NCBI GenBank assembly: GCA_027600665.1
Contig: JADGJL010000007.1
Coordinates: 124,001-188,000 of the forward strand
Reading direction: 5' to 3'
DNA: 64,000 bases
DNA from: Irineochytrium annulatum
Taxonomy: Eukaryota; Chytridiomycota; Chytridiomycetes; Chytridiales; Chytridiaceae
A model generated the notes under the pieces. That model had not been told where the DNA came from and searched no databases. It saw only the letters and a list, made by a program, of their open reading frames with translations. Shown one piece after another: positions 1 to 14,634 of this stretch; the first letter of the stretch is position 1, and each line of letters starts with the position of its first letter. Made by a program: the position numbers and the translations under genes.

Positions 1-660
1 CCTGCACATATTTTCTACGAATGTATTGATGGTTGTGTGTGCTGAATTCTTATTGTTCAATATCTCATGATTACCGGGGGCCTCTAGCGCATATTCCCAA
101 AAGTAGTCTGGCATCTTTACGTGTTCCGAAGTCATGCATGACCATTTAAATTCTGAAAATGGCAGAGCATATTGTCTGTATTCTGTAATATCATCAACCG
201 TATATATCTCCTCGTTCGTCAGATTGAAGCCATAGACAAAAACAGGATGCAGTCCATGTTTTTGGTTATAGTAAAAGTCTCTCCCGCGTTGATAAAATAA
301 ATCAATAAATATGGAAATCGGATGACCACTAGAAATAGAATTGATGATCTCATCTTGTAACGTATCTAGTGCAGGGGATTTTTTACGAATAGAGATCCCC
401 ATTTCCTCAAGGATCTGATCTCCCTCCTGAAGATCCAACACCTCTAACTTGAAATATCCTCTTGTTTGTATTTTTTGTTTATCAAATCTATAAATAGTAA
501 TGACATTATTCAAAATCGACAGCTCATCTTTTTTAAAATACCTGGCAAGCGTTAATAACAAATTGTAGCCGCAATTAAAATAAGGAAAATTATGATGAGG
601 AAACATTTTCGTCATGCCGTCGAAGGGCTGAAAGGTGTCCAGGGAAATAATTTCTTCCAT
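1..660 (-). CDS. BtrH-like acyltransferase / C39-like protein, partial (C-terminus outside window)
   Basis: The gene runs off the left edge; 220 codons are present from the ATG at 658-660, which has an AGGAG ribosome site just upstream. Residue Cys30-Gly31 opens a hydrophobic helix, His138 sits in LHPVFVYGF and Asp156/157 in YTVDD. This is the order and spacing of a papain-fold Cys-His-Asp centre as in the BtrH family, which moves acyl groups from a carrier protein to an acceptor in butirosin assembly. A second, distantly similar protein lies at 11798-12853. The gene is AT-rich (37% GC at 181-240), unlike the genes immediately upstream. A MITE-like element (681-840) separates it from the methyltransferase gene. 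The family call is from motif pattern only; a protease-like role is the alternative. Confidence 0.6.
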   Translation of the reverse strand, partial: MEEIISLDTFQPFDGMTKMFPHHNFPYFNCGYNLLLTLARYFKKDELSILNNVITIYRFDKQKIQTRGYFKLEVLDLQEGDQILEEMGISIRKKSPALDTLQDEIINSISSGHPISIFIDLFYQRGRDFYYNQKHGLHPVFVYGFNLTNEEIYTVDDITEYRQYALPFSEFKWSCMTSEHVKMPDYFWEYALEAPGNHEILNNKNSAHTTINTFVENMCR

Positions 661-680
661 AAAATATTTCTCCTAACCTA

Positions 681-840
681 GGACGTGTCTTGAAACCTAC
701 TGAAGTGCATCTTTTACCGCCTTTTCGCCCCCTGCTACGTCAATTTCCCTTGACGTGCCCCGGCACGCCTGCGGAAAACTTCCTGGCTTGGAACGAAAAT
801 TCAGCAAAATCTGCCGCCTTCAGAGTTTTCAGACACGCCC
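681..840. repeat. MITE-like element with imperfect terminal inverted repeats
   Basis: The left end (681-705) starts GGACGTGTCTTGAAACC and reads on to CTGAAG. The right end (818-840) is its near reverse complement, from CTTCAG to GACACGCCC. The 160-bp body encodes nothing convincing, contains a small TACGTCAA/TTGACGT palindrome, and fills the gap between the methyltransferase and the BtrH-like gene. Size, inverted ends and lack of a transposase fit a non-autonomous element. No clear target duplication is visible. Confidence 0.6.
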
Positions 841-868
841 AAAAATTATTGTTGATATCACGGCTATA

Positions 869-1822
869 TTACCTCTTAACAAGGTTCATCATACGGTATT
901 GCCGCGTTCCAGCCTTCATCTCTTCATATTTCTTCGAGCCGGGCAATGCGATGAATTCATGGATATCTCCAATGTTCGTGCTTGAATTGGCGTTATTCGC
1001 AATTCCTTGTGTGCCAGTACGCTGCTTCGCACTCTCATCACATGATAGAAGAACATTCGAAGTCACATCCTGATTGCGGATTACAGACAGGCCTGCTTCC
1101 TCTAACAGCCTGACGTTTTGCGCTACTTGATCTCCCAGCATCAGCTCCGTATACAGAAATACGCCGCCAACTCTCATGATCCGGTATACCTCTTCATAGA
1201 ATCGTGATCGGTTCGGATAGGCATGTGCGGATTCTATATTTAACACCACATCGAAGCTCTCGTCAGCAAACGGTATATTCTCCGCATCGCCGACGAGATA
1301 CAAAGATTCACCCAATCGGGATTTGGCATTGCAAAAGGCAATATTCGCCGGGCAGATGTCGAGACCCACAATAGACAGCGGCTTGAAATATTTAGACAGA
1401 GCCGCTATGTTCCCTCCCCTGCCGCATCCGATGTCGATCACCTGCCGCTCCCGAATCGCCGTCTTGCCCACTGTCTCAAGCAGCAGCTTGACCGAGTTTC
1501 TATTCCATGCATCGCCCGGCTCGAGCACCGCATGTTGCTCATTCTCGTGCGGGACGTAACCATAGTTCAAGAAGGTGGCGAATCGGCCTATACCGGACAG
1601 CGCAAGGGAGTGCGAAATCTCGCTATAATCCCGAATTTCAGCCTCTTTTCGGTTCCATTCGGAAGGGTGGACAAACTGCTCTCGCCGGTCGAGCATCGAT
1701 AAGTAACGATCATCGTTCGTATATACCGCATCGCAGCTGCAGCATTGCAGCACTGCTTCCAACTGCTCCAGCTCGCCCTTGCAGCTGGAGCATACCAACC
1801 TTGCATGCAGATGCTGTAACAT
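869..1822 (-). CDS. Class I SAM-dependent methyltransferase with N-terminal zinc-ribbon-like motif
   Basis: The protein has 317 residues. A CxxC...CxxC pair (Cys11, Cys14, Cys27, Cys30) suggests a small zinc ribbon, as found ahead of methyltransferase domains in some antibiotic clusters. The SAM-binding glycine motif DIGCGRG is at 130-136, followed by GLD (strand 2) and GDAENIPFADESFDVV, typical of the UbiE/COQ5-like Methyltransf_11 fold. The ATG at 1820-1822 lies two bases after the stop of the FkbM gene, so the two are translated from one message. The substrate is unknown; from context it is an intermediate or product of this cluster. The C-terminal 70 residues are not recognised. Confidence 0.8.
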   Translation of the reverse strand: MLQHLHARLVCSSCKGELEQLEAVLQCCSCDAVYTNDDRYLSMLDRREQFVHPSEWNRKEAEIRDYSEISHSLALSGIGRFATFLNYGYVPHENEQHAVLEPGDAWNRNSVKLLLETVGKTAIRERQVIDIGCGRGGNIAALSKYFKPLSIVGLDICPANIAFCNAKSRLGESLYLVGDAENIPFADESFDVVLNIESAHAYPNRSRFYEEVYRIMRVGGVFLYTELMLGDQVAQNVRLLEEAGLSVIRNQDVTSNVLLSCDESAKQRTGTQGIANNANSSTNIGDIHEFIALPGSKKYEEMKAGTRQYRMMNLVKR

Positions 1823-1824
1823 GA

Positions 1825-2736
1825 CTATCGCCCAGCCGACGTATGCATTTGATTCAACGCGTACACATTATAGTAATTTGGGATATTCAAATCTTCGTAA
1901 TAATCGATCACGGCATAGAAGCCGTTGGTTTGGAAGATGTTCTCGAGCCTGCTGATCTGCTCTCCGTCCAGTCCGTGTACCTCCATTACAATTTGCCTGA
2001 TTTTGCCCCAATCTTCCGGCTCTATGCCATCCAGCACCTCGAACTCACTTTTTTCCACATCGATTTTGAGCAGATCAATTTGGTTCAGACCGTAAAAGCG
2101 GATCATTTCAGAGATCGTAGTTAGCTTGCAACGATAGATTTGTTCATTCAGAAGCTTCGGCGACATAAGATGATCGACAAAGCGGTTTAGCATTCGCGGG
2201 TCAGCGAAATTATCTTCGTAATGGTTGATTAACCCGTATCGGAGATCTTGATCGTGGTTCTCCCTGTATTTGATCTGGACAGAGTCCGTGGACATCGTAG
2301 GAAAATAGGCAAACTCCGCTTCCTTGATCTCATTGGAAAGCCCGACATTAACCGTCGTTACGCGAGGCAGCGAACTCGTATTCATCTTCAAGAGATTAAA
2401 AGTCGGCGGCAGTGGCTCAAAAGCATATACCCTGCAGTCGCTCTTGCTGCTGACATACAGGCTGAACATGCCGATATTAGCCCCAACGTCCATGACCGTG
2501 CCATGATCCGGGAGTGTAATACCGTGCTTGAAATACATCTCCTTGTGGAAAATCTCGTTGTAGAGGAACTCGGTCTCGCCTTCGTTGTTTTGATAGATTT
2601 CGATCCCGTTGTGCAGCCGTTTCTTTTCGATAGCCTTTGTCTGCAACGGATGGCTCTCATGCTCCGTCCTGCTCATTCGATTCACCTTCTCAACAATTTG
2701 TTTTTTGGGCATTTCTCTAACTGCTGGCGCTTTCAT
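1825..2736 (-). CDS. FkbM-family SAM-dependent methyltransferase
   Basis: The protein has 303 residues from the upstream ATG, which overlaps the permease stop by 20 bases; an in-frame ATG eight codons later is also possible. Motif I DVGANIG is at 83-89, followed by VYAFEPLPPTFNLL and the family's C-terminal block IDLLKIDVEKSEFEVLDGI. FkbM-type enzymes usually O-methylate sugars or polyketide oxygens in secondary metabolism. Translational coupling to the exporter genes upstream and the second methyltransferase downstream places it in the biosynthetic operon. Confidence 0.85.
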   Translation of the reverse strand: MKAPAVREMPKKQIVEKVNRMSRTEHESHPLQTKAIEKKRLHNGIEIYQNNEGETEFLYNEIFHKEMYFKHGITLPDHGTVMDVGANIGMFSLYVSSKSDCRVYAFEPLPPTFNLLKMNTSSLPRVTTVNVGLSNEIKEAEFAYFPTMSTDSVQIKYRENHDQDLRYGLINHYEDNFADPRMLNRFVDHLMSPKLLNEQIYRCKLTTISEMIRFYGLNQIDLLKIDVEKSEFEVLDGIEPEDWGKIRQIVMEVHGLDGEQISRLENIFQTNGFYAVIDYYEDLNIPNYYNVYALNQMHTSAGR

Positions 2737-3529
2737 AGCGTTTGACGGCCAGCTTCCAGAACAGCCTGACCACGATAAGCGATATAACGGGAGCTACAAA
2801 AATCCATATCCCAAGGAACAAGTCCAATCGATCGATCAAATAAACCGACGGCATGTTGGTGATGAACAAGATCGGCACAACATACAGCCCTATTCTCCGC
2901 AGCCATTTGGGGTATATGTACATCGGCATATTGTTTAAATCCCAACATTTGTCGAGTATTTCGAAGATCGAACCGGACTTCACCGTCCAGAAGGCAAGAA
3001 TTTGCGGAAGTAGAAGCACCGAATAGGTCACGATCGTGCTACTCAAGATCACGCCGATATATCCGGCCACGTGGATAAAGCTTGGCTCGATGTCAAGACG
3101 CCGCCAAGCCAGTACGATCATCGTGATCCCGGCGATCAGGTTCGGGATCGGAAACGCGAAGTTAACGTGCCGAAATGAAATCATGAACTGCAGCGAAAGC
3201 GGCTTCGTCATATACAAGTCCAGCGTCCCGTTGCGGATATGGCCGGCGAATCTATAAAAGTTATCCATAAACAGTCCTGTATAGATCGCGATCATAATCG
3301 TATAGGTTCCGGTGAAGATCATCATCTGGTCAGGAGAAATGCCATTGATTTCGATCCCGAGCTGGAAAACGAACAAGATATAGATCAGCTTGGAAAACAG
3401 AAATACAGTCTCCATGATCAAACCGGAGTAGAAATTCGCTTTGTATTCCATGTAACCGACCAAGCTGTTCTTTGCGAAAATAAAGAACATACGTACATGC
3501 TTCCGAAACTCCGTCAAGCTGATACTCAC
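2717..3529 (-). CDS. ABC-2 type exporter permease (second permease)
   Basis: A hydrophobic protein with about six membrane segments and the organisation of the ABC-2 permeases that pair with a NatA-like ATPase (COG3694 type). I place the start at the GTG at 3527-3529, because GGAGG lies eight bases upstream; a TTG start five codons earlier would overlap that site. The ribosome site lies at the 3' end of the preceding permease gene, whose stop is at 3534. It probably forms the membrane half of a heteromeric exporter with the gene at 3534-4343. The cargo is presumably the cluster product; the sequence itself does not show it. Confidence 0.8.
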   Translation of the reverse strand: MSISLTEFRKHVRMFFIFAKNSLVGYMEYKANFYSGLIMETVFLFSKLIYILFVFQLGIEINGISPDQMMIFTGTYTIMIAIYTGLFMDNFYRFAGHIRNGTLDLYMTKPLSLQFMISFRHVNFAFPIPNLIAGITMIVLAWRRLDIEPSFIHVAGYIGVILSSTIVTYSVLLLPQILAFWTVKSGSIFEILDKCWDLNNMPMYIYPKWLRRIGLYVVPILFITNMPSVYLIDRLDLFLGIWIFVAPVISLIVVRLFWKLAVKRYESASS

Positions 3530-3533
3530 AGAT

Positions 3534-4343
3534 CTAACCTCCAACGGCTACATATTTCCTCATCCCGGAATCCCACGACAACTTCGAAATTATCATAAGC
3601 GCAATTACCCAGACCACCTGTAAGAGAAGCCCGCGCACGATTTCATGAATCGCCATGCTCCCATTGATGATGTTAACCGGGAAGAATACGACATATTGAA
3701 ACGGTAAGTAGCTGGAGATTCTGGCAAACGTATCTCCGAAAATATTAAGCGGAAAGATGGCACCACTGAGCAGATAGACGCCTTGGTTGAACGCGATATA
3801 AACGCCCCAAACCTCGGTAATGATGAACGCGAGAGCACTAATCGAATAAAAAAGCAGGAAGTTGATGAGCAGTCCGAACAGAATGCTGACCAGGAACATA
3901 ACGATCTGCACCCCTCTAAGGTGAAACCCCCAAATCTGAGTAAAAACGATCATCAGTATGACGAATAAGACAAGGACGACCCCGATCTGAACCGTTTTCC
4001 CACCGAAAAAATTGCATATCCGATAGCTGAAATAATGAATGGGCTGAGCGATAAATTTGCTCAGTCCACCCGTCTTGATATCATTCGCGATTTCCCCTTC
4101 GAAGCCGGCAGAAACCAGCTTGGAGACAACGCCAGACAACACGGAATAAATGATGATCTGTGAATACGTATAGCCGTTAATAATCTCTTGCGGCGAACTG
4201 CGAAACACGGCCGTCCAGAGGAAGCATTGGACGAGAATGATGAAGCCGCCGCTGATAATACTCATAAAGAAATCGGTCCGATACTCCATCGCATTCTGAA
4301 GTGCAAGAATGTACGTCCTTTTATACTTCTGCAAGGCTTTCAT
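3534..4343 (-). CDS. ABC-2 type exporter permease (first permease)
   Basis: This integral membrane protein of about 269 residues opens with the basic segment KALQKYKRTYILALQNAMEYR and then alternates long hydrophobic segments, as in COG4587-type ABC-2 permeases. The ATG at 4341-4343 has GGGGT about six bases upstream and is preferred over an ATG four codons earlier. The gene overlaps the ATPase gene by 23 bases, the tight coupling expected of subunits made in fixed ratio. With the ATPase and the next gene it makes a complete three-gene exporter, likely for product efflux or self-protection. Confidence 0.8.
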   Translation of the reverse strand: MKALQKYKRTYILALQNAMEYRTDFFMSIISGGFIILVQCFLWTAVFRSSPQEIINGYTYSQIIIYSVLSGVVSKLVSAGFEGEIANDIKTGGLSKFIAQPIHYFSYRICNFFGGKTVQIGVVLVLFVILMIVFTQIWGFHLRGVQIVMFLVSILFGLLINFLLFYSISALAFIITEVWGVYIAFNQGVYLLSGAIFPLNIFGDTFARISSYLPFQYVVFFPVNIINGSMAIHEIVRGLLLQVVWVIALMIISKLSWDSGMRKYVAVGG

Positions 4344-5325
4344 GTTTGACCCCATCTTTCTGATACAAGCTTTCGATGCCTCGCTCGACAGGTATATCTT
4401 CCACTGTGAAATCGAGGATCGGGAACCGGTCCAGCATCATCTTGGAAAGCCGCTGGAGGTCATGCTTATCGATCTCCATGACCGCATTCATGCCGTCATG
4501 TTCCATAATAGCGCCATAGTCGCTTAGCGCCTGCCTCGGCACTTCGTCCGTAAATTGCAGCTTGATGATCTTTTTTGCATGAAACAATTCGTTCACACGC
4601 CGAAGATCGCCATCGTATACGATCTTCCCTTGATTGATGATGATCGTGCGTTTGCATAAATCCTCAATATCCGCCATGTAGTGGCTTGTCAGAATGACCG
4701 TTGCTTTCGTCTGCTGGTTATAATACTTCAGGAACTCCCGAATGCGCTTCTGCGAAATCAGATCGAGTCCGATTGTAGGCTCATCCAGGAAAATCACCTT
4801 AGGCCGGTGGATGAGCGACGCAATTAGCTCCATCTTCATCCGTTCCCCCAGCGAAAGCCTGCGCACCTGAATATTGAGCAGATCTTTAACACCAAGCATC
4901 TCCGTAAGCTCATCCAGGACAAGGTTGTAGGGCTTATCCTCGACCTCATAAATGCATTTGTTCAGGTACAACGATTCGTTCGCCGGTAAATCCCACCACA
5001 ACTGCGATTTCTGCCCCATCACGATCGAGAACTGCATCTTGAATTCTTTTTTTCGCTCCCAAGGGATATAGCCTAATACCGTCGCTTGCCCGCTTGTCGG
5101 ATACAAGATGCCGGACAGCATCTTAAGCGTAGTCGTTTTGCCGGAACCGTTCGGGCCTAAGAACCCGACCATCTCGCCTTGCTCGATGACAAGTGATATT
5201 TCGCTAACCGCTTCTTTGATCAGTGATTTCCGCTTCACTAAATTTTTCAGCGATTTTTTGAACCCCAATTCTTTTTCGTAGTAATTGAAGCTTTTGGATA
5301 AGCGTTCCACTTGGATAATGCTCAC
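4321..5325 (-). CDS. ABC transporter ATP-binding protein (ABC-2 exporter, NatA-like)
   Basis: The protein has 334 residues with a full nucleotide-binding domain: Walker A GPNGSGKT at 57-64, signature LSLGERMKME, Walker B VIFLDEPTIGLD and a switch histidine in LTSHYMADIE. The N-terminus has the extra basic helix (KSLKNLVKRKSLIKEAV) seen in the COG4586 group. The roughly 90-residue tail after the ATPase core resembles the regulatory tail of drug-type ABC-2 exporters. It lies first in the three-gene exporter set and 32 bases after the radical SAM gene. Confidence 0.9.
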   Translation of the reverse strand: MSIIQVERLSKSFNYYEKELGFKKSLKNLVKRKSLIKEAVSEISLVIEQGEMVGFLGPNGSGKTTTLKMLSGILYPTSGQATVLGYIPWERKKEFKMQFSIVMGQKSQLWWDLPANESLYLNKCIYEVEDKPYNLVLDELTEMLGVKDLLNIQVRRLSLGERMKMELIASLIHRPKVIFLDEPTIGLDLISQKRIREFLKYYNQQTKATVILTSHYMADIEDLCKRTIIINQGKIVYDGDLRRVNELFHAKKIIKLQFTDEVPRQALSDYGAIMEHDGMNAVMEIDKHDLQRLSKMMLDRFPILDFTVEDIPVERGIESLYQKDGVKHESLAEV

Positions 5326-5357
5326 TGATTCACCTCATTTATGCTCATGTAGAATAG

Positions 5358-6536
5358 TTAAACACCGTGCAAATGCAAGACACTGCACTTGGAACATGCC
5401 GGTGTCAGTCGTTCATCCATCATTTCCCTTATCCTTCTGTAGGTCATGCCGTGCCATAATTCCTGTACGGACGCTTCATTTAAATTGCCGATCTCGAACT
5501 CCTTGAAAAATTTGCACGCAACAATCGTTCCATCGGGCGTAATGTCCATCCGGTTCGAGAGAGCCAGGCACTTCTTGTTCATCGTGCCTTTACTCCTCAC
5601 CTCTTTGCCGAGCACGAAATCTTCGATCTGGTCATAATCCAGATTCGGCTGGTAGCGTAAACGCATTTTCCAGACCCGATTATTCACCCGGTCCAACTCG
5701 CTCATCAAAGCAGGGATACGCTCCGGATCGAGCTTGTAGTTAAAGGCGTGCCAGCTTCGTTCGCCCTTGTGCTCGCTCGCCGGAAGGAAGTCGAACTTCT
5801 GGTCAAAATAATCGTCCATTCCCTGCGTGCATTCGTCCGAGATGTACCACGGGAAGCAGACCATGACCATATCTACACCGACGCCCTCCAGAAAGTCCAA
5901 CAAATCATAAAGCTTGTCGGTCATCCCATCGTTAACGACGGTATGGATCGTAATTTTGCCCCTGAATCGGTTTTCCTTGCGCAGCTCGACTAGCATCCGA
6001 ATAGCATCTATCGCCTTGTTAAATACCCCTTTGCCGCGAAGCGCATCATTCTCTTCTTCGAATCCATCAAGTGCAATGAGCAGCTCCAGGTTGTCGGAGA
6101 TTCTCAGCAAGGTGTCCAGCTTTCGCTCGATCAGCATCGCGTTCGTACAGATCGTCGTCTCGCGAGGATGGGCTTCAAGCAAATCGGCCAAACGGTCGAA
6201 ATGGCTGTATACGAGCGGCTCGCCGCCCCAGATATAGAGTCTCGACTTGGCTGGTTCCGTCTCAAGGATCAGCTTCTCCAGCAGCCCGTAGTCGAGCTGC
6301 TCCCGCTGCTGCTCCGGTGTCATAAAGTGATGGTAGCCCGTGTCGTTCCATTGATAACAATGCTTGCAGCGCAAGTTGCATTGGTTCGTCAGTTTAATCC
6401 CGACCGACTCTGGCAACGGTGTCGCGTAACCCGCTATTTTTTCCATGTTCCGCTTGGTTTCCACCGTATTCTTGATCGTACGTTTCAATATTTGCAAATC
6501 CTTTGGGGAACGTTTAATCTCTGATTTCGGATTCAT
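5358..6536 (-). CDS. Radical SAM/SPASM protein (second of a related pair)
   Basis: The protein has 392 residues. The radical SAM cluster motif is Cys53-x3-Cys57-x2-Cys60 (CNLRCKHC), followed by the GGEP motif in YIWGGEPLVY. The C-terminal SPASM region shows spaced cysteines in NKKCLALSN, GTIVACKFF and PACSKCSVLHLHGV, consistent with at least one auxiliary iron-sulfur cluster. It is clearly related to the radical SAM protein upstream (43 bases away). Members of this superfamily in butirosin and similar clusters (BtrN) oxidise sugar carbons, while others modify peptides. No precursor peptide gene is visible, so a small-molecule or carrier-bound substrate is the better guess. Confidence 0.85.
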   Translation of the reverse strand: MNPKSEIKRSPKDLQILKRTIKNTVETKRNMEKIAGYATPLPESVGIKLTNQCNLRCKHCYQWNDTGYHHFMTPEQQREQLDYGLLEKLILETEPAKSRLYIWGGEPLVYSHFDRLADLLEAHPRETTICTNAMLIERKLDTLLRISDNLELLIALDGFEEENDALRGKGVFNKAIDAIRMLVELRKENRFRGKITIHTVVNDGMTDKLYDLLDFLEGVGVDMVMVCFPWYISDECTQGMDDYFDQKFDFLPASEHKGERSWHAFNYKLDPERIPALMSELDRVNNRVWKMRLRYQPNLDYDQIEDFVLGKEVRSKGTMNKKCLALSNRMDITPDGTIVACKFFKEFEIGNLNEASVQELWHGMTYRRIREMMDERLTPACSKCSVLHLHGV

Positions 6537-6579
6537 ATCAACACCACCCCTCTTAAACCTATTAGGTCATTCACATGAA

Positions 6580-7674
6580 TCAATAGATATAATACCTTGA
6601 ACAAGCCGTGCAGATCGGAAGCATATTTTTTTTCATATACGCGCGATAATCTTTGTACTTGTCACTACTCCAGATATCCATCAAGCTCTCTTCGTTCACG
6701 TTGCCAAAGGTCAAATCATAGAAGGCATGGCAGGGCGAAACGTCGCCCCTTGCTGTAATCTCTGCATAAACCCATGGAAGGGAGCAGCGATTTCGTTTAT
6801 CAGCCATCTGATGGAATTGCCCCGAGAAATAGTTGCTCAAATTTTGCTCATCTATCGTTTTCGGATAGGTGATCACATGAATGCTGTTTTTCAAGCAATA
6901 CGCTTTAACATTATTGAGCTGTCTCGTCAATTCCGGAATATCGATCTGGCTGAACGAACTGGTGTCCCGCCACACCATCCCCTTGGCATAAGGAGCTTCA
7001 TGCACGTCGAATTTGTCACTAAGAACCTCCACATATTGGGCATACTGCTCTTCCGTTGCGTAGAGCTGCACTTCCATGCTGATATGGTCCAACATCGACA
7101 AGTCGATATGCTTAAAGAAAAATTCCTCAACGTACATATAGTTCAAGGGCGTAATGATAAAGGATACACCCATTTTCGGAAATTGCTTGCCCTTGCTTTC
7201 CCGAAGCTCATAAAGCTTCTCGATCCCCTTGATTACTTTCTTGAATACGCCTTTGCCTCTCTGCTTATCGTTGATTTCCTCAGGGCCGTCGAGAGACATC
7301 CAGATCTTATTTGGAGCAGTCTCGACAAGCATCTCGGCATGCTGCTCAAGCAATGTGCCGTTCGTGGGGAAATCTGCTTTACTTCCATAGTGATTGATCA
7401 TGGCGAGAATGTCGCCCAGCCAAGGGTACATCAGTGGCTCGCCACCGAAGAAATCGTAATATGGCTTGCCCGGGCTGCACTCGACGATGATCTTTTTAAT
7501 GAGATCCGGATCCAGATGCGCTAACGTTTTTTTGCTTTTGTACGGCCCTTCGAGTCCCCACTCATAGCACATCTTGCATCGTAAATTACACTCCTCCAAC
7601 AGCTGCATGACAATCCATCTCGGATAGCTTGTCATTGTCTTATCTTGGACGACACTCAATTTGTTTACGCTCAT
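6580..7674 (-). CDS. Radical SAM/SPASM protein (first of a related pair)
   Basis: The protein has 364 residues. Cys29-x3-Cys33-x2-Cys36 (CNLRCKMC) binds the radical SAM cluster, with GGEP in DFFGGEPLMYPW. A SPASM-type C-terminus carries cysteines in RNRCSLPW, VSPCHAFYD and PICTACSRYYIY. The FGNVNEESLMDIWSS segment matches the GN...LxxIWxS signature common in SPASM proteins. The ATG at 7674 follows an AGGGGT site. It lies between the glycosyltransferase-like gene and its paralogue. The reaction cannot be read from the sequence; candidates are C-H oxidation, epimerisation or C-C bond formation. Confidence 0.85.
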   Translation of the reverse strand: MSVNKLSVVQDKTMTSYPRWIVMQLLEECNLRCKMCYEWGLEGPYKSKKTLAHLDPDLIKKIIVECSPGKPYYDFFGGEPLMYPWLGDILAMINHYGSKADFPTNGTLLEQHAEMLVETAPNKIWMSLDGPEEINDKQRGKGVFKKVIKGIEKLYELRESKGKQFPKMGVSFIITPLNYMYVEEFFFKHIDLSMLDHISMEVQLYATEEQYAQYVEVLSDKFDVHEAPYAKGMVWRDTSSFSQIDIPELTRQLNNVKAYCLKNSIHVITYPKTIDEQNLSNYFSGQFHQMADKRNRCSLPWVYAEITARGDVSPCHAFYDLTFGNVNEESLMDIWSSDKYKDYRAYMKKNMLPICTACSRYYIY

Positions 7675-7701
7675 CGCATAACCCCTTTTGCCATTGAAAT
7701 G

Positions 7702-8817
7702 TTACCCCTTCGTTAACGCGACTCTCGCACAATAATGATCCACATAATTCGTTCGTTCTCCGGGTCTGTTCATGATCGCTTGATGCATCTCCTTAAGGAC
7801 CTCTACGGAAAAATCCATCTCCCGCCACTTCTCGTAGCGGATTCCGAACCCCAGAGACTCCCACAATTCCAAATTGCTAAGCTCGTGACTTCCGAACGGC
7901 TCCAGCAAAATAAGAGGGGTACCGGATGCAAGCGAGTCGATTAATGTGCCCGCTCCCGGCTTGGCCACGATAGCCATCGCCTCCGAAGCGATATCGAATA
8001 ACCAATGATGATCAACCTCAGCGGCGTATGACTTCGTGCCTTCTCCCGTTATTTCGATGTATGGCGGAAACTCGTGCAGGCCGTTCGCACTCTTCACCCA
8101 TGCACACCATTCCGGATCATTCATCCAATATCGGTGATCGGGATCGGGCTTCGCTTCCTTCCAATCGTAAGCTACGATATCAAGCCCGTAGCTATGGCCG
8201 GCAAGCTCTGGAATTGTACTTTGATAAGTGCCCATCCCCCAGCCGCCGCCATGAACAACAAGCCGCCGCTTCCTTGAGTCGAAGGGCATTGGCGTACGAT
8301 GAAGAACCGGGATTTCGCATCGAATCTCCATCTTGTCGGTGTCATAGAGACAAGCATTGTAATAATACTCGTCGTAGTGAGGATGAAACTTCTTCAAGCT
8401 CTTCCAGGACGGGGCCAGATCTGAATCGACGTAGAGCAGGTCTACATGAATTCGATTCGGCAGCATCTTCTCCCTATACAAATCAAGAATATAGATCCAG
8501 TGTCCGGATAGCGATATGAATTCGTATCGGTCTTCCGCTTTCCACGCCTCCAGCAACAGCTCGACCAGGGCATAATCAATGCTGCCCCGGATATCCATCG
8601 GCATTCGGGCCGATAGATTGGCAAGTGCGAAATTATTGTGATAAGCCCTTCTGCTGTCTACAATATGATCCATCTTGTCTTGCTCCAAATAGCTTTCGAA
8701 CACGAGTACTTCCGTCGCGATATCCCTTTTCTCGAAATCACTTGCAGCTAACAGACCGGGAATATAGAAACCCAGACCGAAACCCGAGCATAGAATCGTC
8801 ACTTTCCGCTTACCCAT
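7702..8817 (-). CDS. GT-B-fold glycosyltransferase-like protein
   Basis: I start it at the ATG at 8815-8817, preceded by GGAGGA. A longer frame from 8862 (TGATG overlap with the ATP-grasp gene) lacks a good ribosome site. The N-terminal VTILCSGFGLGFYIPGLL resembles the first beta-alpha unit of nucleotide-sugar glycosyltransferases. The C-terminal AKPGAGTLIDSLASGTPLILLEPFGSHELSN resembles the donor-binding loop of MurG/UGT-type GT-B enzymes. The middle is divergent. With a UXS-like enzyme encoded nearby, transfer of a pentose or modified sugar is a reasonable guess, but donor and acceptor are unproven. Confidence 0.6.
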   Translation of the reverse strand: MGKRKVTILCSGFGLGFYIPGLLAASDFEKRDIATEVLVFESYLEQDKMDHIVDSRRAYHNNFALANLSARMPMDIRGSIDYALVELLLEAWKAEDRYEFISLSGHWIYILDLYREKMLPNRIHVDLLYVDSDLAPSWKSLKKFHPHYDEYYYNACLYDTDKMEIRCEIPVLHRTPMPFDSRKRRLVVHGGGWGMGTYQSTIPELAGHSYGLDIVAYDWKEAKPDPDHRYWMNDPEWCAWVKSANGLHEFPPYIEITGEGTKSYAAEVDHHWLFDIASEAMAIVAKPGAGTLIDSLASGTPLILLEPFGSHELSNLELWESLGFGIRYEKWREMDFSVEVLKEMHQAIMNRPGERTNYVDHYCARVALTKG

Positions 8818-8861
8818 AAAATTTCTTCCTCCATTCATGGCTTCAAGCGCTTCGGACTGCA

Positions 8862-10220
8862 TCAGCGGGCGATCTTGAAGGATAACGACGACAGCACCTC
8901 CTTAACCTTAGCGATCAATCGTTCGTTATCCCATTCCCCTTCAATCAACGAATAATATAATCTGCCTTTCACCTGCTTATTCCGGATCCCCTTGCACTCA
9001 TTGATGACTTTGTTAATAAGGAGCGTATTCGCGCTTAACGGTAAAATACCGAATCCTCGATCAGGCTTATATAGAACACCCTCGCGGTCCAGCGATTCAA
9101 GCAATTGATCGAATGATACATCGCAGGCAAACTGTAAATTCACATGCGTCATGCTCCCTGCCGTGTCGTGCTTCTTCAGGTAGCGGTCAACGTAATGCTT
9201 GATCAGACTCATCGATCTTCTGGCATTCACCTCAACAATCGGAACGATGCGGCCGTCTGTCAACAGCATGGAATCGACGCATACGTCGCCGTGATAACCC
9301 GACCGATAAAGCTCGCGAGCCGCCCGTTTCATTACATCAAAATACTTCGCTTCCTGCAGCATATGAAGCAACCTATCGTCTGCTGTATAGGAGCCTTGGT
9401 AAGCGAAATTGTGATTGACCAACTGCTGCACTGAGATATGTCGATAAGTACCGTCCGGATCGATGTGGAATTGGCAAGAAAAATCCAATTCCTTGCGGAG
9501 GAACGGCTCAACAATAAACCGAACCGTTTTTCCCTTGCTGCACTGATCGGCGACATAGGATGTGACTCGCCGCAAAATCGCTTCCGACTCGATCAACAAA
9601 TTCCCTTTCCCCGATACCCCAAACTCATCTTTGATCAGGAAGGGTCCTTGATTCAGCAAAGTCAAGCCGCTTGCCAGCAGCTCTTCGGGAGAATAGACCG
9701 TCTGGCTGTCACACTGAAGATCAAGGCGACGGTTCAATTCGGTTGAATACAGCTTCGAATTGACAGTCTGAACCGTTTCGATAGCTGGAAAATCCTGTTC
9801 CAGCCCGTAACGCGCTGCAGTACGATCCGCCCCCGGAATGATTGCAAAGGGCGACAACCGGGCGCCATCCAGCAAGTAGAGATCCATGTCCCCCATTCGA
9901 TCGGCTGATGTGAGCAGGTCGAATATATTGGCGGTTCTGCCTGCGCTTCCTACATCAGGACTCTCGAGATCGGTTGAATTAGAAAGAAATTTAAATCCGA
10001 TCTCATGCAAATACGCTTTATGGCAAACGTTCATTCGATAGCGAGTAATGAGCCTATCCGGCGCCTCGCAAAATGGGAAGAGCAACTCATCCATGGCCAT
10101 CACGATATTCTCCATTTCAGGATCGTGAAACGACGGCAGTTTGGCTAGATTAGGGTCGCGCCAGAAGCGTTCCGCATCAAATGTCCCGATAATGAGCTCG
10201 AACTTGCGTCTATCGTTCAT
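8862..10220 (-). CDS. ATP-grasp ligase, BtrJ-like (amino acid to carrier protein?)
   Basis: The protein has 452 residues. The central region shows ATP-grasp features: PFLIKDEFGVSGKGNLLI as the nucleotide-binding lysine and glycine loop, VRFIVEPFLRKELDFS, and the metal-binding block VPIVEVNARRSMSLI. The order matches BtrJ-type ligases, which attach an amino acid to the phosphopantetheine thiol of an ACP. The gene directly follows a carrier-protein gene, overlapping its stop by four bases, which supports that pairing. The N-terminal 150 residues are variable. Alternatives are a peptide ligase or an amide-forming ligase acting on a free intermediate. Confidence 0.7.
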   Translation of the reverse strand: MNDRRKFELIIGTFDAERFWRDPNLAKLPSFHDPEMENIVMAMDELLFPFCEAPDRLITRYRMNVCHKAYLHEIGFKFLSNSTDLESPDVGSAGRTANIFDLLTSADRMGDMDLYLLDGARLSPFAIIPGADRTAARYGLEQDFPAIETVQTVNSKLYSTELNRRLDLQCDSQTVYSPEELLASGLTLLNQGPFLIKDEFGVSGKGNLLIESEAILRRVTSYVADQCSKGKTVRFIVEPFLRKELDFSCQFHIDPDGTYRHISVQQLVNHNFAYQGSYTADDRLLHMLQEAKYFDVMKRAARELYRSGYHGDVCVDSMLLTDGRIVPIVEVNARRSMSLIKHYVDRYLKKHDTAGSMTHVNLQFACDVSFDQLLESLDREGVLYKPDRGFGILPLSANTLLINKVINECKGIRNKQVKGRLYYSLIEGEWDNERLIAKVKEVLSSLSFKIAR

Positions 10221-10468
10221 ACAGGCGCTGTCTTCTGTAGCTCCGAGATATAATTGCAGAAGGTCGTTACCGACTCCATAAGATCGAAGTCGAATTGTTC
10301 AAAATCGATCTCAATACCGAAACGCTCTTCCACATTTAATACAAAAGTAATTAGCTGTAGGGAGTCCAATCCCCCGTCTTCCATGATGTTGGAATGCTCG
10401 TTCAAACGGTTTGCCAGCTCAGCGTCTTCCTTGATTTCGCTTATCATCGCTATGATCTGTTCTTGCAT
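10217..10468 (-). CDS. Acyl/aminoacyl carrier protein (second carrier)
   Basis: The protein has 83 residues. The ATG at 10466-10468 is chosen because GGGAGG lies six bases upstream; the frame continues further upstream but into the preceding gene. Ser36 in GGLDSLQLITFV is the expected phosphopantetheine site, followed by VEERFGIEIDFEQFDF and a short terminal helix, the usual ACP fold. It overlaps the ATP-grasp gene by four bases, so that ligase is its likely loading enzyme. The cluster has another carrier at 14392-14634 paired with an AMP-forming ligase. Confidence 0.88.
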   Translation of the reverse strand: MQEQIIAMISEIKEDAELANRLNEHSNIMEDGGLDSLQLITFVLNVEERFGIEIDFEQFDFDLMESVTTFCNYISELQKTAPV

Positions 10469-10481
10469 AGGTACCTCCCGT

Positions 10482-11429
10482 TTAATGGATATATTGACCC
10501 TGGTAATAATGGATCGTTTTAGCGAGTGCATCATGTAAACTGATCGCCGGTTCCCAGTTCATAATCGTCCTTGAAATGGTAATATCCGGCTTCCTTCTCC
10601 TTGGATCGTCTTCCGGCAGCGGGAGAAACTCTAACTGCGCGTTGGACTTCATTAACTCCTTCAATATTTGGGCGACTTCAAGTATGGTGACTTCCTCCGG
10701 ATTCCCCAAATTGACTGGCTGTTCATACGTGGTGCTCATCAGTCTCACAATCCCTTCCAGCAAATCGTCGATATACTGAAAGCTTCTCGTCTGTCTGCCG
10801 TCGCCATAAATCGTAAGGTTTTGCTTGGACATGATTTCATTAATGAAATTGGTAATGACGCGTCCGTCATGTAGATCCATCTTCGGGCCGAATGTATTGA
10901 AGATCCGAATGACCCTTACCGGTATACCGTATTTCCTGTTCATCCAGTAGGTGATCGCCTCTGCATAGCGCTTCGCTTCGTTGTAGCAGCTTCTTGCTCC
11001 AATCGAATTCACGTTGCCATAGTAGCTCTCCGGCTGAGGGTGAACAGTTGGGTTACCGTAGATCTCGCTTGTTGAAGCCAAGAAGAAGGCAGCCTGCTTT
11101 TCTTTGGCCAGATACAGCAGATGCATCGTCCCTTCGCTGTTGACCCTCATCGTTTCGATCGGATAGGACAAATATTTAGGCGGACTGGCAGGGCTTGCAA
11201 AATGCATCACCCAATCGACAGGGCCTTCAATTGAGAGCGGATAAATGACGTCATGCTCGATAAACTTGAAATTTGGCGACCGTAAGAGATTGTCTATGTT
11301 GACAGTAGACCCGGTCAGAAAATTATCGACGCCGATAACGGAATGGCCTTCCCGCAGCAGCCTCTCGGCAAGGTTGGAACCGATGAAACCTGCAACTCCT
11401 GTTAATACAATGAATATTATGATCCCCAC
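10482..11429 (-). CDS. NAD-dependent sugar epimerase/decarboxylase, UDP-xylose synthase-like
   Basis: A short-chain dehydrogenase of the extended class, about 315 residues. The NAD loop is Gly11-x2-Gly14-x2-Gly17 (TGVAGFIGSN), the catalytic pair Tyr149/Lys153 lies in CYNEAKRYAE, and NTFGPKMDLHDGRV with RSFQYIDDL are typical of UDP-glucuronate decarboxylases. These convert UDP-glucuronate to UDP-xylose or the 4-keto intermediate. The start is uncertain: GTG at 11427-11429 opens the frame, but AGGGTGGGGAT looks like a ribosome site for a start a few codons later (ATA or ATT codons). It could supply an unusual sugar to the glycosyltransferase-like protein. Confidence 0.8.
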   Translation of the reverse strand: MGIIIFIVLTGVAGFIGSNLAERLLREGHSVIGVDNFLTGSTVNIDNLLRSPNFKFIEHDVIYPLSIEGPVDWVMHFASPASPPKYLSYPIETMRVNSEGTMHLLYLAKEKQAAFFLASTSEIYGNPTVHPQPESYYGNVNSIGARSCYNEAKRYAEAITYWMNRKYGIPVRVIRIFNTFGPKMDLHDGRVITNFINEIMSKQNLTIYGDGRQTRSFQYIDDLLEGIVRLMSTTYEQPVNLGNPEEVTILEVAQILKELMKSNAQLEFLPLPEDDPRRRKPDITISRTIMNWEPAISLHDALAKTIHYYQGQYIH

Positions 11430-11797: not shown

Positions 11798-12853
11798 TTA
11801 CTGAATGTCTACCTTCTTCAACCATCGTTTAAAGAATATGGATTCTTCATTTTCTATATTCGTAATCAGCGTTTGTAAACTTTCGGAAATACTCGTATCC
11901 TTTGTCAAATTATATTTAATCGCTAGATTCACAAGGATTTTTGCTTTAATTTCAATAGCTGTGAATTCATCTATATGCTCTTGATTTAATTCAATTAAAT
12001 GCTGATTATCGTACAAGTACTTGAATCTTAGCGTCATTATCTTCTTATGATCATAAAGTAAATGAAAGGGTCTTATATCAAGCATAGCCTTATGTTCCGA
12101 TGTCTCTTTCGCATAATTAAATAGAGTTGTGTATATTTGCATGCCGAAGTCAAGATTTTGCCTGTCGCCCCCGTAGTTAAACATCTCCCAATACTCCGGC
12201 GTTTTCTTAGTGAAATAATTTCTTATCGAATTCACTAGGGTATCTGCACTGAATTTATCCTGATAATGATCATTGAATGTATACAGGTAAACCATTTCTT
12301 TTAGATAATCATGATTCGTTGTTAGATGATTCTTTTCGAACGCAACATTGAAATCAGTAAATGATATCTCAGCCTGACTATACACCCCGTTCTTAAAAAA
12401 ATCGGAAACATACAATATCTCTCTATCCAAATCATAGCCGTAAACAAATATGTCATGATGCAATTGAAGTTTATTGTAGCGATCGCTTAAGGGCACGTAG
12501 AAATAATTGATCATGGTATGGACATAGTTATTGGCATTAATATTTTCTACAATAAAATGAATAACAGAGTCCCATTTCGTTGTTACAGTATCTCTATGTA
12601 GCTTTTGAGTAGTAATCCATTTGCACGCATCCGAAGGTCTCAGCTCATAAGTCAGAGGGAAATAAAAATCTCCCCAATGGTGTTTATAATCTTTGTTAAT
12701 AAATAATTGAATATAATTGCTATATATCCATGGGTGTGCGCACTCGTAATGAGTAAGGATCGACAAGAGATGAGCATGTTGCGTATAGGTTGTAATCATC
12801 GGATAACTGACCGGCAATATTTTTCTGCCCAATGTTTGAGTTGAATTCTTCAA
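11798..12853 (-). CDS. BtrH-like acyltransferase / C39-like protein
   Basis: The protein has 351 residues with a TTG start at 12851-12853 after an AGGGGTGA site. Cys38 lies in HYECAHPW, His132/His133 in LHHDIFVYGYDL and Asp151 in YVSDFF, the Cys-His-Asp order of the papain-like BtrH family. A roughly 150-residue helical C-terminal part follows. Directly upstream are an AMP-forming ligase and a carrier protein, so the likely role is moving a carrier-bound acyl group onto an acceptor. The gene is strongly AT-rich (32% GC at 12001-12060). A partial relative lies at 1-660. Function is inferred from motifs and context, not from a strong match. Confidence 0.6.
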   Translation of the reverse strand: MKNSTQTLGRKILPVSYPMITTYTQHAHLLSILTHYECAHPWIYSNYIQLFINKDYKHHWGDFYFPLTYELRPSDACKWITTQKLHRDTVTTKWDSVIHFIVENINANNYVHTMINYFYVPLSDRYNKLQLHHDIFVYGYDLDREILYVSDFFKNGVYSQAEISFTDFNVAFEKNHLTTNHDYLKEMVYLYTFNDHYQDKFSADTLVNSIRNYFTKKTPEYWEMFNYGGDRQNLDFGMQIYTTLFNYAKETSEHKAMLDIRPFHLLYDHKKIMTLRFKYLYDNQHLIELNQEHIDEFTAIEIKAKILVNLAIKYNLTKDTSISESLQTLITNIENEESIFFKRWLKKVDIQ

Positions 12854-12901
12854 CCTTCGTTCACCCCTGGTTATTTGGTTAAATGGCTTAAGGATTCCGA
12901 A

Positions 12902-14395
12902 TCAGTATATCTCATTTAGCAATAAGCGCTTCGTACTTGCTCTGTCCAGTTTTCCTGTCTTTGTTTTTGGAATGTTATCTACAATCCTCCATTGTCTAGG
13001 CACTTTATACGATGACAAATGCAATTTGCAATGTCGTGTCAGTGCATCTATATCAACCAGGCAATCATTAAAGACTTTCAGAAATGCGATGGGCACTTCA
13101 CCTAACAAATTATCGTGTACACCAACAACCATGACCTCCTCCACTTCTTTCAAGCCGTACAAAAATTCCTCGATTTCTTCTGGATAGATATTGATACCGC
13201 CGGATATAATGATATTCTTCTTTCGGCCTGTGAGTATAAGACATCCTGATTCATTCCGATATCCCAAATCTCCTGTCTTTAACCAACCCTCAACAATGGT
13301 AGCGTTCGTTAACTCCGGATTTTTGTAATAACCGAGCATCACATTCGGGCCCTTGACCCAAATTTCTCCGATAGCTGCTCCTTCAACCTCATTCTCTTCT
13401 TCGTCAACAAGACGAATAGAAACGTCATTGATGGGTGATCCACAGGATAAGCTGCGCTCTCCCCGTTCCATCATGCTCACCCGCGGAGAAGCTTCGGTCA
13501 ATCCATAGGTTTGAATAATGTCCGCGTGAGGAAATACAGTCTGGAGATGGTCTACTAATTTCGCGGGAATCGCCGCACCGCTAATTACAATAAATTCAAT
13601 TGAATCAAAGGCACTCCAGTTCTTTGTCTGATGGAAATCGGAAACAAAGTGCATCAATTGCGTAGGCACCGCTGAGAATGCCGTGACCGCCTTATTCTGA
13701 AACAGTTTAAACGCTGTGCGCGGCAGCAAAGGCAAGCTGATAAGTTTAATTCGGGTTCCATATAGCATGCAAGAAATCAATTGCGTGACAATCGTAGAAC
13801 TGAAATGAACGGGCATCGTTACAAGAAACGAATCTTGATCCGTATACCCCACCTTTCCGCCATGTGCCAACGCATTCGTTAATACATTCCAATGGGATAA
13901 CATAACGATTTTAGATTTTCCGGTTGTGCCTGATGTAGGAAGGAGAATCGCACATTGATTGGGATCGGACTGATTGGTTAACGAGATCGATTCGAACGAA
14001 GGCATTAGTTCTTGCGATATATCCTGAGCGGTAACCCAAGGAATGTCGCAATTTAAATGCGCAGGCTGTGCAGATTTGCTGATAACCAATTTGGCGTCAC
14101 TGGCATTTAAAATATTTTTAATTTCAGTATTGGATGCCGAATAAGGAACCGGTATTAACACATAACCGCAGAATTGAATGCCAAGCGCCGCAAAAATGAA
14201 GAAGGGCTCATTATTTGTGTATAATGCAAGATGACTTCCGGACTCAAGCTCAAAATTTTTGTGGATGTATAAAGCAATCAAATAAGCTTCTGTCATCACC
14301 TCTGCGTAAGTCCATTGCTGCTTTAGATCTTCAAGGATAATATGATCTTGGCGATCAGAGGCCTCCAGAAATAGACGCTGAATGATCGTCATCAT
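12902..14395 (-). CDS. AMP-forming acyl-CoA/acyl-ACP ligase (ANL superfamily)
   Basis: The protein has 497 residues, the normal length for a stand-alone adenylation enzyme. ATP loop TSGTTGKSK is at 154-162, then TYGLTEASP, GWLKTGDLGY, and GRKKNIIISGGINIYPEEIE at the hinge. The catalytic lysine lies in KTKTGKLDR near residue 482. The start overlaps the carrier-protein stop by four bases, so it most likely adenylates an acid and loads it on that carrier. SGAAIPAKLV resembles the acyl or aryl acid ligases rather than amino-acid adenylation domains, but the substrate cannot be fixed by eye. Confidence 0.88.
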   Translation of the reverse strand: MMTIIQRLFLEASDRQDHIILEDLKQQWTYAEVMTEAYLIALYIHKNFELESGSHLALYTNNEPFFIFAALGIQFCGYVLIPVPYSASNTEIKNILNASDAKLVISKSAQPAHLNCDIPWVTAQDISQELMPSFESISLTNQSDPNQCAILLPTSGTTGKSKIVMLSHWNVLTNALAHGGKVGYTDQDSFLVTMPVHFSSTIVTQLISCMLYGTRIKLISLPLLPRTAFKLFQNKAVTAFSAVPTQLMHFVSDFHQTKNWSAFDSIEFIVISGAAIPAKLVDHLQTVFPHADIIQTYGLTEASPRVSMMERGERSLSCGSPINDVSIRLVDEEENEVEGAAIGEIWVKGPNVMLGYYKNPELTNATIVEGWLKTGDLGYRNESGCLILTGRKKNIIISGGINIYPEEIEEFLYGLKEVEEVMVVGVHDNLLGEVPIAFLKVFNDCLVDIDALTRHCKLHLSSYKVPRQWRIVDNIPKTKTGKLDRASTKRLLLNEIY

Positions 14396-14634
14396 AGCGT
14401 TTTCTCTGTCAAATAATTAAGGATTAATTCAGTCGTGGAGAACTTCTCAAATAACAGATCTTCATCAGGGATCGAGATGTTAAACTTCGATTCCACTAAA
14501 ACAATAAGCTTGATGAAGCCTACTGAATCGATCCCTTGTTCCAACAAACGGGTATCGTGGTCATCCGAATACTCGATGTCCAGCTCAGCAAAAATTTCAT
14601 CTCTCAAGATCGATTCTATTGATTTAGACATCAT
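14392..14634 (-). CDS. Acyl carrier protein (first carrier, first gene of the cluster)
   Basis: The protein has 80 residues starting at ATGATG behind a GGGGGAA site; either ATG may be used. Ser37 in QGIDSVGFIKLIV is the phosphopantetheine site, followed by ESKFNISIPDEDLLFEKF and a final short helix. The four-base overlap with the AMP ligase marks its partner. It is the promoter-proximal gene of the cluster. The nearest good promoter (15124-15152) is almost 500 bases upstream, across a dead transposase. Confidence 0.9.
   Translation of the reverse strand: MMSKSIESILRDEIFAELDIEYSDDHDTRLLEQGIDSVGFIKLIVLVESKFNISIPDEDLLFEKFSTTELILNYLTEKTL

What the first reader, a model, noticed from the sequence alone, without database searches (positions are those of the whole stretch)
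1..14634. Unmatched biosynthetic cluster combining butirosin-type carrier chemistry, sugar enzymes and two radical SAM proteins
One strand carries two carrier proteins, an AMP ligase, an ATP-grasp ligase, two BtrH-like acyltransferases, a UXS-like sugar enzyme, a glycosyltransferase-like protein, two SPASM radical SAM enzymes, two methyltransferases and a dedicated ABC-2 exporter. I see no 2-deoxystreptamine genes, PKS, NRPS modules or RiPP precursor. The butirosin-style logic (BtrI/BtrJ/BtrH) is known; its use with this tailoring set is not something I can match. An acylated glycosylated small molecule is inferred.
Basis: partly seen in the sequence, partly recalled or inferred. Interest (0 to 1): 0.85.

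Follow-up and report, generated by a model that had tools for sequence, protein, structure and literature searches.

The report
Carrier-protein cluster making an unknown glycoconjugate
A Paenibacillus gene cluster appears to build an unidentified molecule from an amino acid, an acyl group and a sugar, with its intermediates held on small carrier proteins; four of its genes form a cassette that recurs in distant bacterial phyla without any product we could name.

Summary
Fifteen same-strand genes span 15.0 kb, from window 14634 to 387 bases beyond window base 1. They encode two carrier proteins, an AMP ligase, an ATP-grasp ligase, two papain-fold (CcbD/CtaG/BtrH type) transferases, a UXS-type enzyme, a GT-B glycosyltransferase, two radical SAM enzymes, two methyltransferases and an ABC-2 exporter. 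Ten Paenibacillus loci keep this gene order (five without UXS, one with transferase 2 split).

The new result is the core. Of 80 loci chosen only by the ATP-grasp protein, 78 have the carrier protein, 79 the glycosyltransferase and 71 a radical SAM enzyme, across five phyla by record title; two Streptomyces plasmids add a sixth. The cluster thus joins closthioamide-like two-carrier loading to a mitomycin-like carrier/glycosyltransferase/radical-SAM trio. Most likely an aminoacyl-carrier thioester is glycosylated and remodelled on the carrier, acylated, methylated and exported.

The parts
14392..14634 (-). carrier protein 1 (ACP1, 80 aa)
   Evidence: PP-binding 34.7 bits; Ser37 kept in 13 of 13 aligned
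12902..14395 (-). acyl-AMP ligase (497 aa), predicted loader of ACP1
   Evidence: AMP-binding 217.5 bits; at E up to 1e-40 the PDB chains are 2-succinylbenzoate-CoA ligases, a fatty-acyl-CoA synthase and a feruloyl-CoA synthetase; overlaps ACP1 by 4 nt
11798..12853 (-). transferase 1, CcbD/CtaG/AziU fold without Cys nucleophile (351 aa)
10482..11429 (-). UDP-glucuronate decarboxylase (UXS)-type SDR (315 aa; start codon uncertain)
   Evidence: human UXS1 4gll 354.8 bits, next family 123.6 bits; Tyr149 and Lys153 kept in 20 of 20 aligned
10217..10534 (-). carrier protein 2 (ACP2); true start probably the ATG at 10468 (83 aa)
   Evidence: PP-binding 31.8 bits; Ser58 (GLDSLQ) kept in 77 of 77 aligned
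8862..10220 (-). ATP-grasp ligase (452 aa), predicted aminoacyl:ACP2 ligase
   Evidence: 477 homologues at E up to 1e-3; PDB 8ynd; KDxxGVSGKGN and ExNAR invariant in 18 of 18 aligned
7702..8862 (-). GT-B glycosyltransferase (386 aa)
   Evidence: model pLDDT 90.6; Foldseek SnogD, MurG, CalG3, MGD1; within 200 bp of the ATP-grasp gene on the same strand in 72 of 78 measured loci
6580..7674 (-). radical SAM enzyme 1 (364 aa), CxxxCxxC plus 4 conserved auxiliary Cys
   Evidence: Pfam; 7 Cys kept in 72 of 72 aligned; PDB hits 5wgg, BtrN, cytosylglucuronate decarboxylase
5358..6536 (-). radical SAM enzyme 2 (392 aa), CxxxCxxC plus 4 conserved auxiliary Cys and invariant Cys130
   Evidence: Pfam; 8 Cys kept in 72 of 72 aligned; PDB hits 5wgg, SkfB, BtrN
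4321..5325 (-). ABC exporter ATPase (334 aa), DrrA-like
   Evidence: ABC_tran; TIGR01188 drrA 194 bits, below its cut-off of 312
3534..4355 (-). ABC-2 permease 1 (273 aa)
   Evidence: ABC2_membrane_6 78.5 bits
2717..3544 (-). ABC-2 permease 2 (275 aa)
   Evidence: ABC2_membrane_6 138.7 bits
1825..2736 (-). FkbM-family methyltransferase (303 aa)
   Evidence: PF05050 64.1 bits, TIGR01444 88.2 bits
869..1822 (-). class I methyltransferase (317 aa), nearest to lipid O-methyltransferase models
   Evidence: Methyltransf_11 77 bits; NF045823 and NF045825 about 155 bits, below their cut-offs
1..660 (-). transferase 2 (first 220 of 348 aa; the rest lies up to 387 bases left of the window, L006:614-1660)
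   Evidence: Cys30 and His138 invariant in 8 of 8 aligned, including a BtrH_N-family member; hhalign to transferase 1, prob 97.7%, over residues 95-351

Best explanation
A complete NRPS-independent biosynthetic cluster with two loading arms. Arm 1: the AMP ligase loads a carboxylic acid on ACP1. Arm 2: the ATP-grasp ligase loads an amino acid (or several) on ACP2. The UXS-type enzyme makes UDP-xylose (or a related pentose) from the host's UDP-glucuronate, and the GT-B enzyme transfers this sugar to the ACP2-bound aminoacyl unit. The two radical SAM enzymes then oxidise, epimerise or cross-link the sugar or the sugar-amino acid joint, as MitD is proposed to do in mitomycin. The CcbD/CtaG-fold transferases move the ACP1 acyl group onto the amine and release the product. 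The two methyltransferases cap it and the ABC-2 pump exports it. Shown here: gene content, predicted folds, conserved catalytic residues, co-conservation. Inferred from families: the carrier, ligase, GT and transferase roles. Hypothesis only: that glycosylation happens on the carrier, the xylose donor, the radical SAM chemistry, the order of steps, and all substrates.
For: Unit: genes A-O stay in order in ten relatives, L007-L015 and L017 (L011-L014 and L017 without UXS; L007 with transferase 2 split), and D-O in L016; the two genes upstream of the cluster (families f27, f29) are shared only by L007-L009 and L011-L014, so the cluster travels apart from its flank. Core: of 80 ATP-grasp loci, ACP2 78, GT 79, any rSAM 71, ABC ATPase 53; ATP-grasp to GT under 200 bp on the same strand in 72 of 78, ACP2 to ATP-grasp under 150 bp in 64 of 77. 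Streptomyces plasmid loci L087 and L088 carry GT (335 and 348 bits), rSAM and ACP2 homologues. Sugar link: UXS/UGD genes in 18 of 23 loci with rSAM1 against 1 of 57 without; the distant L021 enzyme is also UXS-like. Transferase 1 fold: CcbD and CtaG, carrier-dependent amide formers (papers). Precedents.
Against: Seven relatives (L070, L073-L075, L077, L082, L084; one tree clade) have no rSAM in the fetched stretch. Five close relatives lack UXS, so its product must come from elsewhere or is not essential. The rSAM1-UXS link rests on few independent events: 2 on starred branches, sign test not significant. Transferase 1 lacks the cysteine that CcbD uses. L019's ATP-grasp frame is broken. Nothing shows that the GT acts on the carrier rather than on a free acceptor. 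19 of 80 loci show no BtrH/CcbD-type transferase in the fetched stretch.
Confidence: 0.55

Rival explanations
1. Butirosin order of events: GT, UXS and radical SAM enzymes build a free glycoside or aminosugar first; ATP-grasp/ACP2 and AMP ligase/ACP1 make side chains that the BtrH-type enzymes attach at the end.
For: CcbD acylates an amino sugar (PMC12945683, passages) and BtrH is an ACP:aminoglycoside acyltransferase (PMC10318531, passages); 13 of 80 related loci add a gene of the Orn/DAP/Arg-decarboxylase family cluster (one representative scanned by Pfam; count); rSAM1's PDB hits include BtrN and cytosylglucuronate decarboxylase, which act on small sugars (substrates recalled).
Against: The tightest conserved block is ACP2-ATP-grasp-GT, not GT plus sugar genes; UXS is dispensable and sugar-nucleotide genes vary while ACP2 stays.
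Confidence: 0.3
2. The cluster decorates a cell-envelope lipid or glycan rather than making a diffusible compound; the ABC-2 pair flips a glycolipid.
For: GT fold matches include MurG and galactolipid synthase MGD1; weak hits to diglucosyl diacylglycerol synthase, about 15 bits; methyltransferase nearest to lipid methyltransferase models.
Against: Patchy presence (42 of 75 genomes of one genus at E 1e-60, 12 of 75 at window-type scores); two carriers and condensing-type transferases are typical of specialised metabolism (general knowledge); accessory genes differ strongly between loci.
Confidence: 0.1
3. The genes are unrelated neighbours.
For: The first three genes (ACP1, AMP ligase, transferase 1) are absent from L016, L018 and L019, so that part is separable.
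Against: Overlapping or near-touching reading frames, one strand, and joint conservation across differing upstream flanks.
Confidence: 0.03

Closest known systems
Closthioamide (cta) assembly, Ruminiclostridium cellulolyticum
   Same: ATP-grasp ligase for one carrier, acyl ligase for a second carrier, CtaG transferase between them (PMC6772006, passages); fold of transferase 1
   Different: no AANH thioamide enzyme among the proteins scanned by Pfam; here GT, UXS, two radical SAM enzymes and methyltransferases are present
Mitomycin early steps (MitE, MmcB, MitB, MitD)
   Same: acyl-carrier loading, a glycosyltransferase and a radical SAM enzyme; MitB glycosylates carrier-bound AHBA (PMC8621148, PMC9570651, passages)
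   Different: mitomycin uses an AMP ligase and AHBA; here an ATP-grasp ligase; homology of GT or radical SAM enzymes to MitB or MitD was not tested
Butirosin side-chain genes (BtrI, BtrJ, BtrK, BtrH)
   Same: ACP, ATP-grasp loader and papain-fold acyltransferase (roles of BtrI and BtrJ recalled; BtrH in PMC10318531, passages)
   Different: no 2-deoxystreptamine genes and no BtrK-like decarboxylase in this cluster; BtrH_N score below cut-off
Lincosamide condensing enzyme CcbD/LmbD
   Different: CcbD uses a Cys-His-Glu triad; transferase 1 has no Cys there; only 8% identity
Predicted ACP/BtrH/ATP-grasp operons around a paralogous methionyl-tRNA synthetase (2010 survey)
   Same: computational prediction of non-ribosomal operons holding ACP, BtrH-type papain-fold transacylases and ATP-grasp ligases (PMC2922099, passages)
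   Different: the passages describe a core of tRNA synthetase paralogue, cupin and lysine monooxygenase, not GT and radical SAM

Membership tests
Butirosin-type cluster | 2-deoxystreptamine biosynthesis genes (2-deoxy-scyllo-inosose synthase etc.; recalled) | tested here: not met
   none among the 15 cluster proteins (Pfam; transferase 2 by Pfam only as its window part, in full by NCBIfam)
Butirosin-type cluster | ACP plus ATP-grasp aminoacyl:ACP ligase (BtrI/BtrJ-like) | tested here: inconclusive
   ACP2 clear; ligase by the 8ynd hit and a homologue's name only; no BtrJ sequence was at hand
Butirosin-type cluster | BtrK-like PLP decarboxylase | tested here: not met
   absent from the 15 genes; such a family in 13 of 80 related loci
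BtrH/CtaG/CcbD transferases (transferase 1) | overall fold | tested here: met
BtrH/CtaG/CcbD transferases (transferase 1) | catalytic Cys | tested here: not met
   window protein has no Cys at residues 17-32; of 31 aligned rows only L086 (pos. 23) and L067 (pos. 24) have one there
BtrH/CtaG/CcbD transferases (transferase 2) | conserved Cys and His | tested here: met
   Cys30 and His138 invariant in 8 of 8; sequence only, no model made
Closthioamide-type two-carrier system | two free carriers with ATP-grasp and acyl-AMP loaders plus CtaG-fold enzyme | tested here: met
   (by family and fold; pairing of loader and carrier is inferred from gene order)
Closthioamide-type two-carrier system | AANH thioamidation enzyme | tested here: not met
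   no such Pfam hit
Radical SAM/SPASM enzymes | CxxxCxxC motif and SPASM domain | tested here: met
   Pfam over cut-off; motif invariant in 72 of 72 aligned
Radical SAM/SPASM enzymes | seven-Cys SPASM with two auxiliary clusters (recalled definition) | tested here: not met
   four conserved auxiliary Cys in each; the window proteins' other Cys (66, 260; 227, 236) lie outside the SPASM match
UDP-glucuronate decarboxylase (UXS) | closest to UXS, with Tyr-Lys dyad | tested here: met
   354.8 bits to UXS1 against 123.6 for the next family; Tyr149, Lys153; activity not tested
Mitomycin-type on-carrier glycosylation | GT acts on carrier-bound acyl group | not testable with these tools
   needs enzyme assay

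The most novel reading that the evidence does not exclude
ACP2-ATP-grasp-GT(-radical SAM) is the core of an uncharacterised, multi-phylum class of NRPS-independent clusters. Its common step would be glycosylation of an aminoacyl thioester on a free-standing carrier protein, followed in most lineages by radical remodelling of the sugar or the sugar-amino acid joint. Release would use different acyltransferases in different lineages: Cys-containing or Cys-less CcbD-fold enzymes, with KAS III-like or condensation-domain proteins also encoded in some loci. The Cys-less branch would form amides without an acyl-enzyme intermediate.
Probability: 0.35. Interest if true: 0.8.

Novelty: new variant of a known kind. 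Interest (0 to 1): 0.62.

Why it matters
If right, a small four-gene cassette defines a genome-mining handle for a family of glycosylated amino-acid-derived metabolites that NRPS, PKS and RiPP rules would not key on. ATP-grasp members occur in Paenibacillus (42 of 75 genomes of the genus of the L009 genome), Clostridium, Lachnospiraceae, a Nostoc, Methylococcaceae-type MAGs, Bacteroidota and Streptomyces plasmids. It makes two questions testable: whether on-carrier glycosylation, known to me only from mitomycin, is general, and how a CcbD-fold enzyme without its cysteine works. The P. xylanexedens group carries the full 15 kb version, a convenient size for heterologous expression.

Tried and rejected
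RiPP: of the 25 NCBIfam models shown for each radical SAM enzyme (of 70 and 71 hit) none reached its cut-off, and none of the 15 genes looks like a precursor; no dedicated search for very short genes was made. Housekeeping UXS: rejected as the whole story, because a UXS-like gene also recurs beside rSAM1 in the distant L021-type loci. AziU2/U3-style obligate pair of the two transferases: not supported as a rule, since 20 of 32 loci with a member of transferase 1's family show no member of the Cys-bearing families in the fetched stretch (three of the 20, L067, L072 and L078, score only 103-111 bits, and L067 and L086 have a Cys near the site).

Known product: the paper searches gave none. ATP-grasp/carrier protein/radical SAM/butirosin/gene cluster: 0 papers. 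ATP-grasp/acyl carrier protein/radical SAM/Paenibacillus: 0. ATP-grasp/BtrJ/carrier protein: 0. Closthioamide/ATP-grasp/carrier protein: 2, one opened. Searches (22 listed; 15 of 16 listed) showed nothing whose title or start of abstract matched this gene set; only PMC8621148 was opened from them. One search listed 15 of 30 papers naming butirosin, Paenibacillus and antiSMASH, none opened. One search listed 15 of 22, two opened (PMC10318531, PMC2922099). One search listed 15 of 26, two new ones opened (PMC12945683, PMC9570651). One search failed because CTAG is a DNA word. A 2009 amidoligase survey (recalled) that may mention related ATP-grasp neighbourhoods is not held, so prior description cannot be excluded. 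Rfam at gathering thresholds: no hit in the window. Promoter scan: a good sigma-70-like match at 15152-15124 minus, but 4 found against 2.9 expected, so weak. MIBiG and antiSMASH could not be run.

Rows dropped: one search found 103 relatives and kept 80. L056's contig ends inside its ATP-grasp gene and L045's inside its GT gene; both stay's counts as misses. L015's contig begins just before ACP1, so its upstream flank is unseen. Residue counts use only homologues covering at least 60% of the query's BLAST, the window row included; in the rSAM1 and rSAM2 alignments the single radical SAM of many loci serves in both sets.

Full report
WHAT IS THERE. The window is bases 124001-188000 of a 199 kb contig in a 26.9 Mb, 1082-contig assembly. 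That assembly is too large for one bacterium, while the nearest relatives of the ATP-grasp gene are Paenibacillus of the P. xylanexedens group (96-98% identity); the contig is probably a bacterial one inside a mixed or eukaryotic assembly (inference). On the minus strand fifteen open genes run from 14634 to 387 bases beyond window base 1: ACP1, AMP ligase, transferase 1, UXS, ACP2, ATP-grasp, GT, rSAM1, rSAM2, ABC ATPase, two ABC-2 permeases, FkbM methyltransferase, second methyltransferase, transferase 2. Upstream comes an RNA uracil methyltransferase-like gene (15348-17081); downstream lie frames that read as a reductase and a TetR-like regulator.

IT IS A UNIT. Ten Paenibacillus loci (L007-L015, L017) keep the order, five of them without UXS (L011-L014, L017); in L007 transferase 2 is split over two frames. 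L016 lacks the first three genes. L018 and L019 lack these too and have another BtrH_N-like gene at the end, and L019's ATP-grasp frame is broken. The two genes directly upstream (families f27 and f29) are shared by L007-L009 and L011-L014 but not by L010, L016, L017, L018 or L019 (L015's upstream side is not on its contig). So the cluster, not the chromosome region, is what is conserved. In the genus of the L009 genome 12 of 75 genomes carry an ATP-grasp protein at window-type scores (699-720 bits) and 42 of 75 some member at E 1e-60.

THE CORE IS WIDESPREAD. The 80 best of 103 loci were collected with the ATP-grasp alignment alone. Without having been selected for, ACP2 is found in 78, the GT in 79, a radical SAM enzyme in 71 and the ABC ATPase in 53. 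ATP-grasp and GT lie under 200 bp apart on the same strand in 72 of 78. Record titles name Paenibacillus, Clostridium, Lachnospiraceae and Thermoflavimicrobium (Bacillota), a Margulisbacteria MAG, a Nostoc MAG, two Methylococcaceae-type MAGs and two Bacteroidota; in the Nostoc MAG the radical SAM gene lies about 8 kb off on the other strand. Two of three Streptomyces plasmid hits were opened; both carry GT, radical SAM and ACP2 homologues. Partners vary: MocA-type oxidoreductase, Orn/DAP/Arg decarboxylase, second ATP-grasp and ACP, BtrH_N protein, UDP-glucose dehydrogenase and sugar nucleotidyltransferase, KAS III-like protein, APH-like protein (one representative of each family scanned); in L087 a condensation-domain protein. 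Transferases of the BtrH/CcbD type were found in 61 of 80 loci. Seven loci of one ATP-grasp clade have no radical SAM gene in the fetched stretch; two of them also showed no ACP2.

SUGAR LINK. rSAM1 occurs in 23 of 80 loci, always with rSAM2. UXS-like or UDP-glucose dehydrogenase genes occur in 18 of these 23 and in 1 of the other 57 (Fisher p 1.7e-12, but loci are related). On the ATP-grasp tree the two-rSAM state lies at several places, yet only 2 independent pairs rest on well-supported branches, so the sign test cannot be significant (quick tree). The SDR of distant L021 is also closest to UXS. I read this as a hint that rSAM1 works on a UDP-glucuronate-derived sugar.

MECHANISM. Two precedents cover the two halves. 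Closthioamide: ATP-grasp CtaD and ligase CtaI are predicted to load carriers CtaE and CtaH, and CtaG to join the acyl groups (PMC6772006, passages). Mitomycin: MitE and MmcB present AHBA to the ACP-dependent glycosyltransferase MitB, then MitF and MitD act; MitD is proposed for C-C bond formation (PMC8621148, abstract and passages; PMC9570651, passages). The window joins both halves. Operons with ACP, BtrH-type and ATP-grasp genes were already predicted in another setting (PMC2922099, passages). My confidence that this is an NRPS-independent carrier-protein glycoconjugate pathway is higher (about 0.8) than in on-carrier glycosylation (about 0.45).

LIMITS. No product, substrate or expression evidence; structures are predictions; no MIBiG or antiSMASH; literature limited to open-licence PMC papers, of which I saw abstracts and passages only.

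Noticed in passing
window 18932-19696 (+): A gene of the NPP1/necrosis-inducing-protein family (Pfam NPP1, 252 bits) lies upstream of the cluster on the opposite strand.
   Followed up: no
whole assembly (G000): The window's assembly is 26.9 Mb in 1082 contigs and shows only two SPASM matches, both in this cluster, so only part of a Paenibacillus genome may be present; a related ATP-grasp protein is recorded under the fungus Hortaea werneckii (P0119), which suggests similar contamination elsewhere.
   Followed up: partly
L036, L039, L043, L047, L049, L058, L059, L066, L068: Paenibacillus loci (P. nuruki, P. brasilensis, P. terrae and others) carry a related cluster with two ATP-grasp genes, a BtrH_N-family transferase and an Orn/DAP/Arg-decarboxylase-family gene, as in butirosin side-chain synthesis.
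   Followed up: partly
L070, L073-L075, L077, L082, L084: A Paenibacillus clade (P. ehimensis, P. tyrfis, P. tianmuensis and others) keeps ATP-grasp, GT and a transferase-1-family gene but has no radical SAM gene in the fetched stretch.
   Followed up: no
L007:19559-20592: Transferase 2 is split over two overlapping frames in Paenibacillus sp. PCH8, a frameshift or sequencing error.
   Followed up: no
L019:9829-11700: The ATP-grasp reading frame of Paenibacillus sp. 598K is in short pieces while the rest of the core is open.
   Followed up: no
window 5358-6536 (-), residue Cys130: An extra cysteine before the TN(G/A) motif of rSAM2 is invariant in all 72 aligned sequences; role unknown.
   Followed up: no
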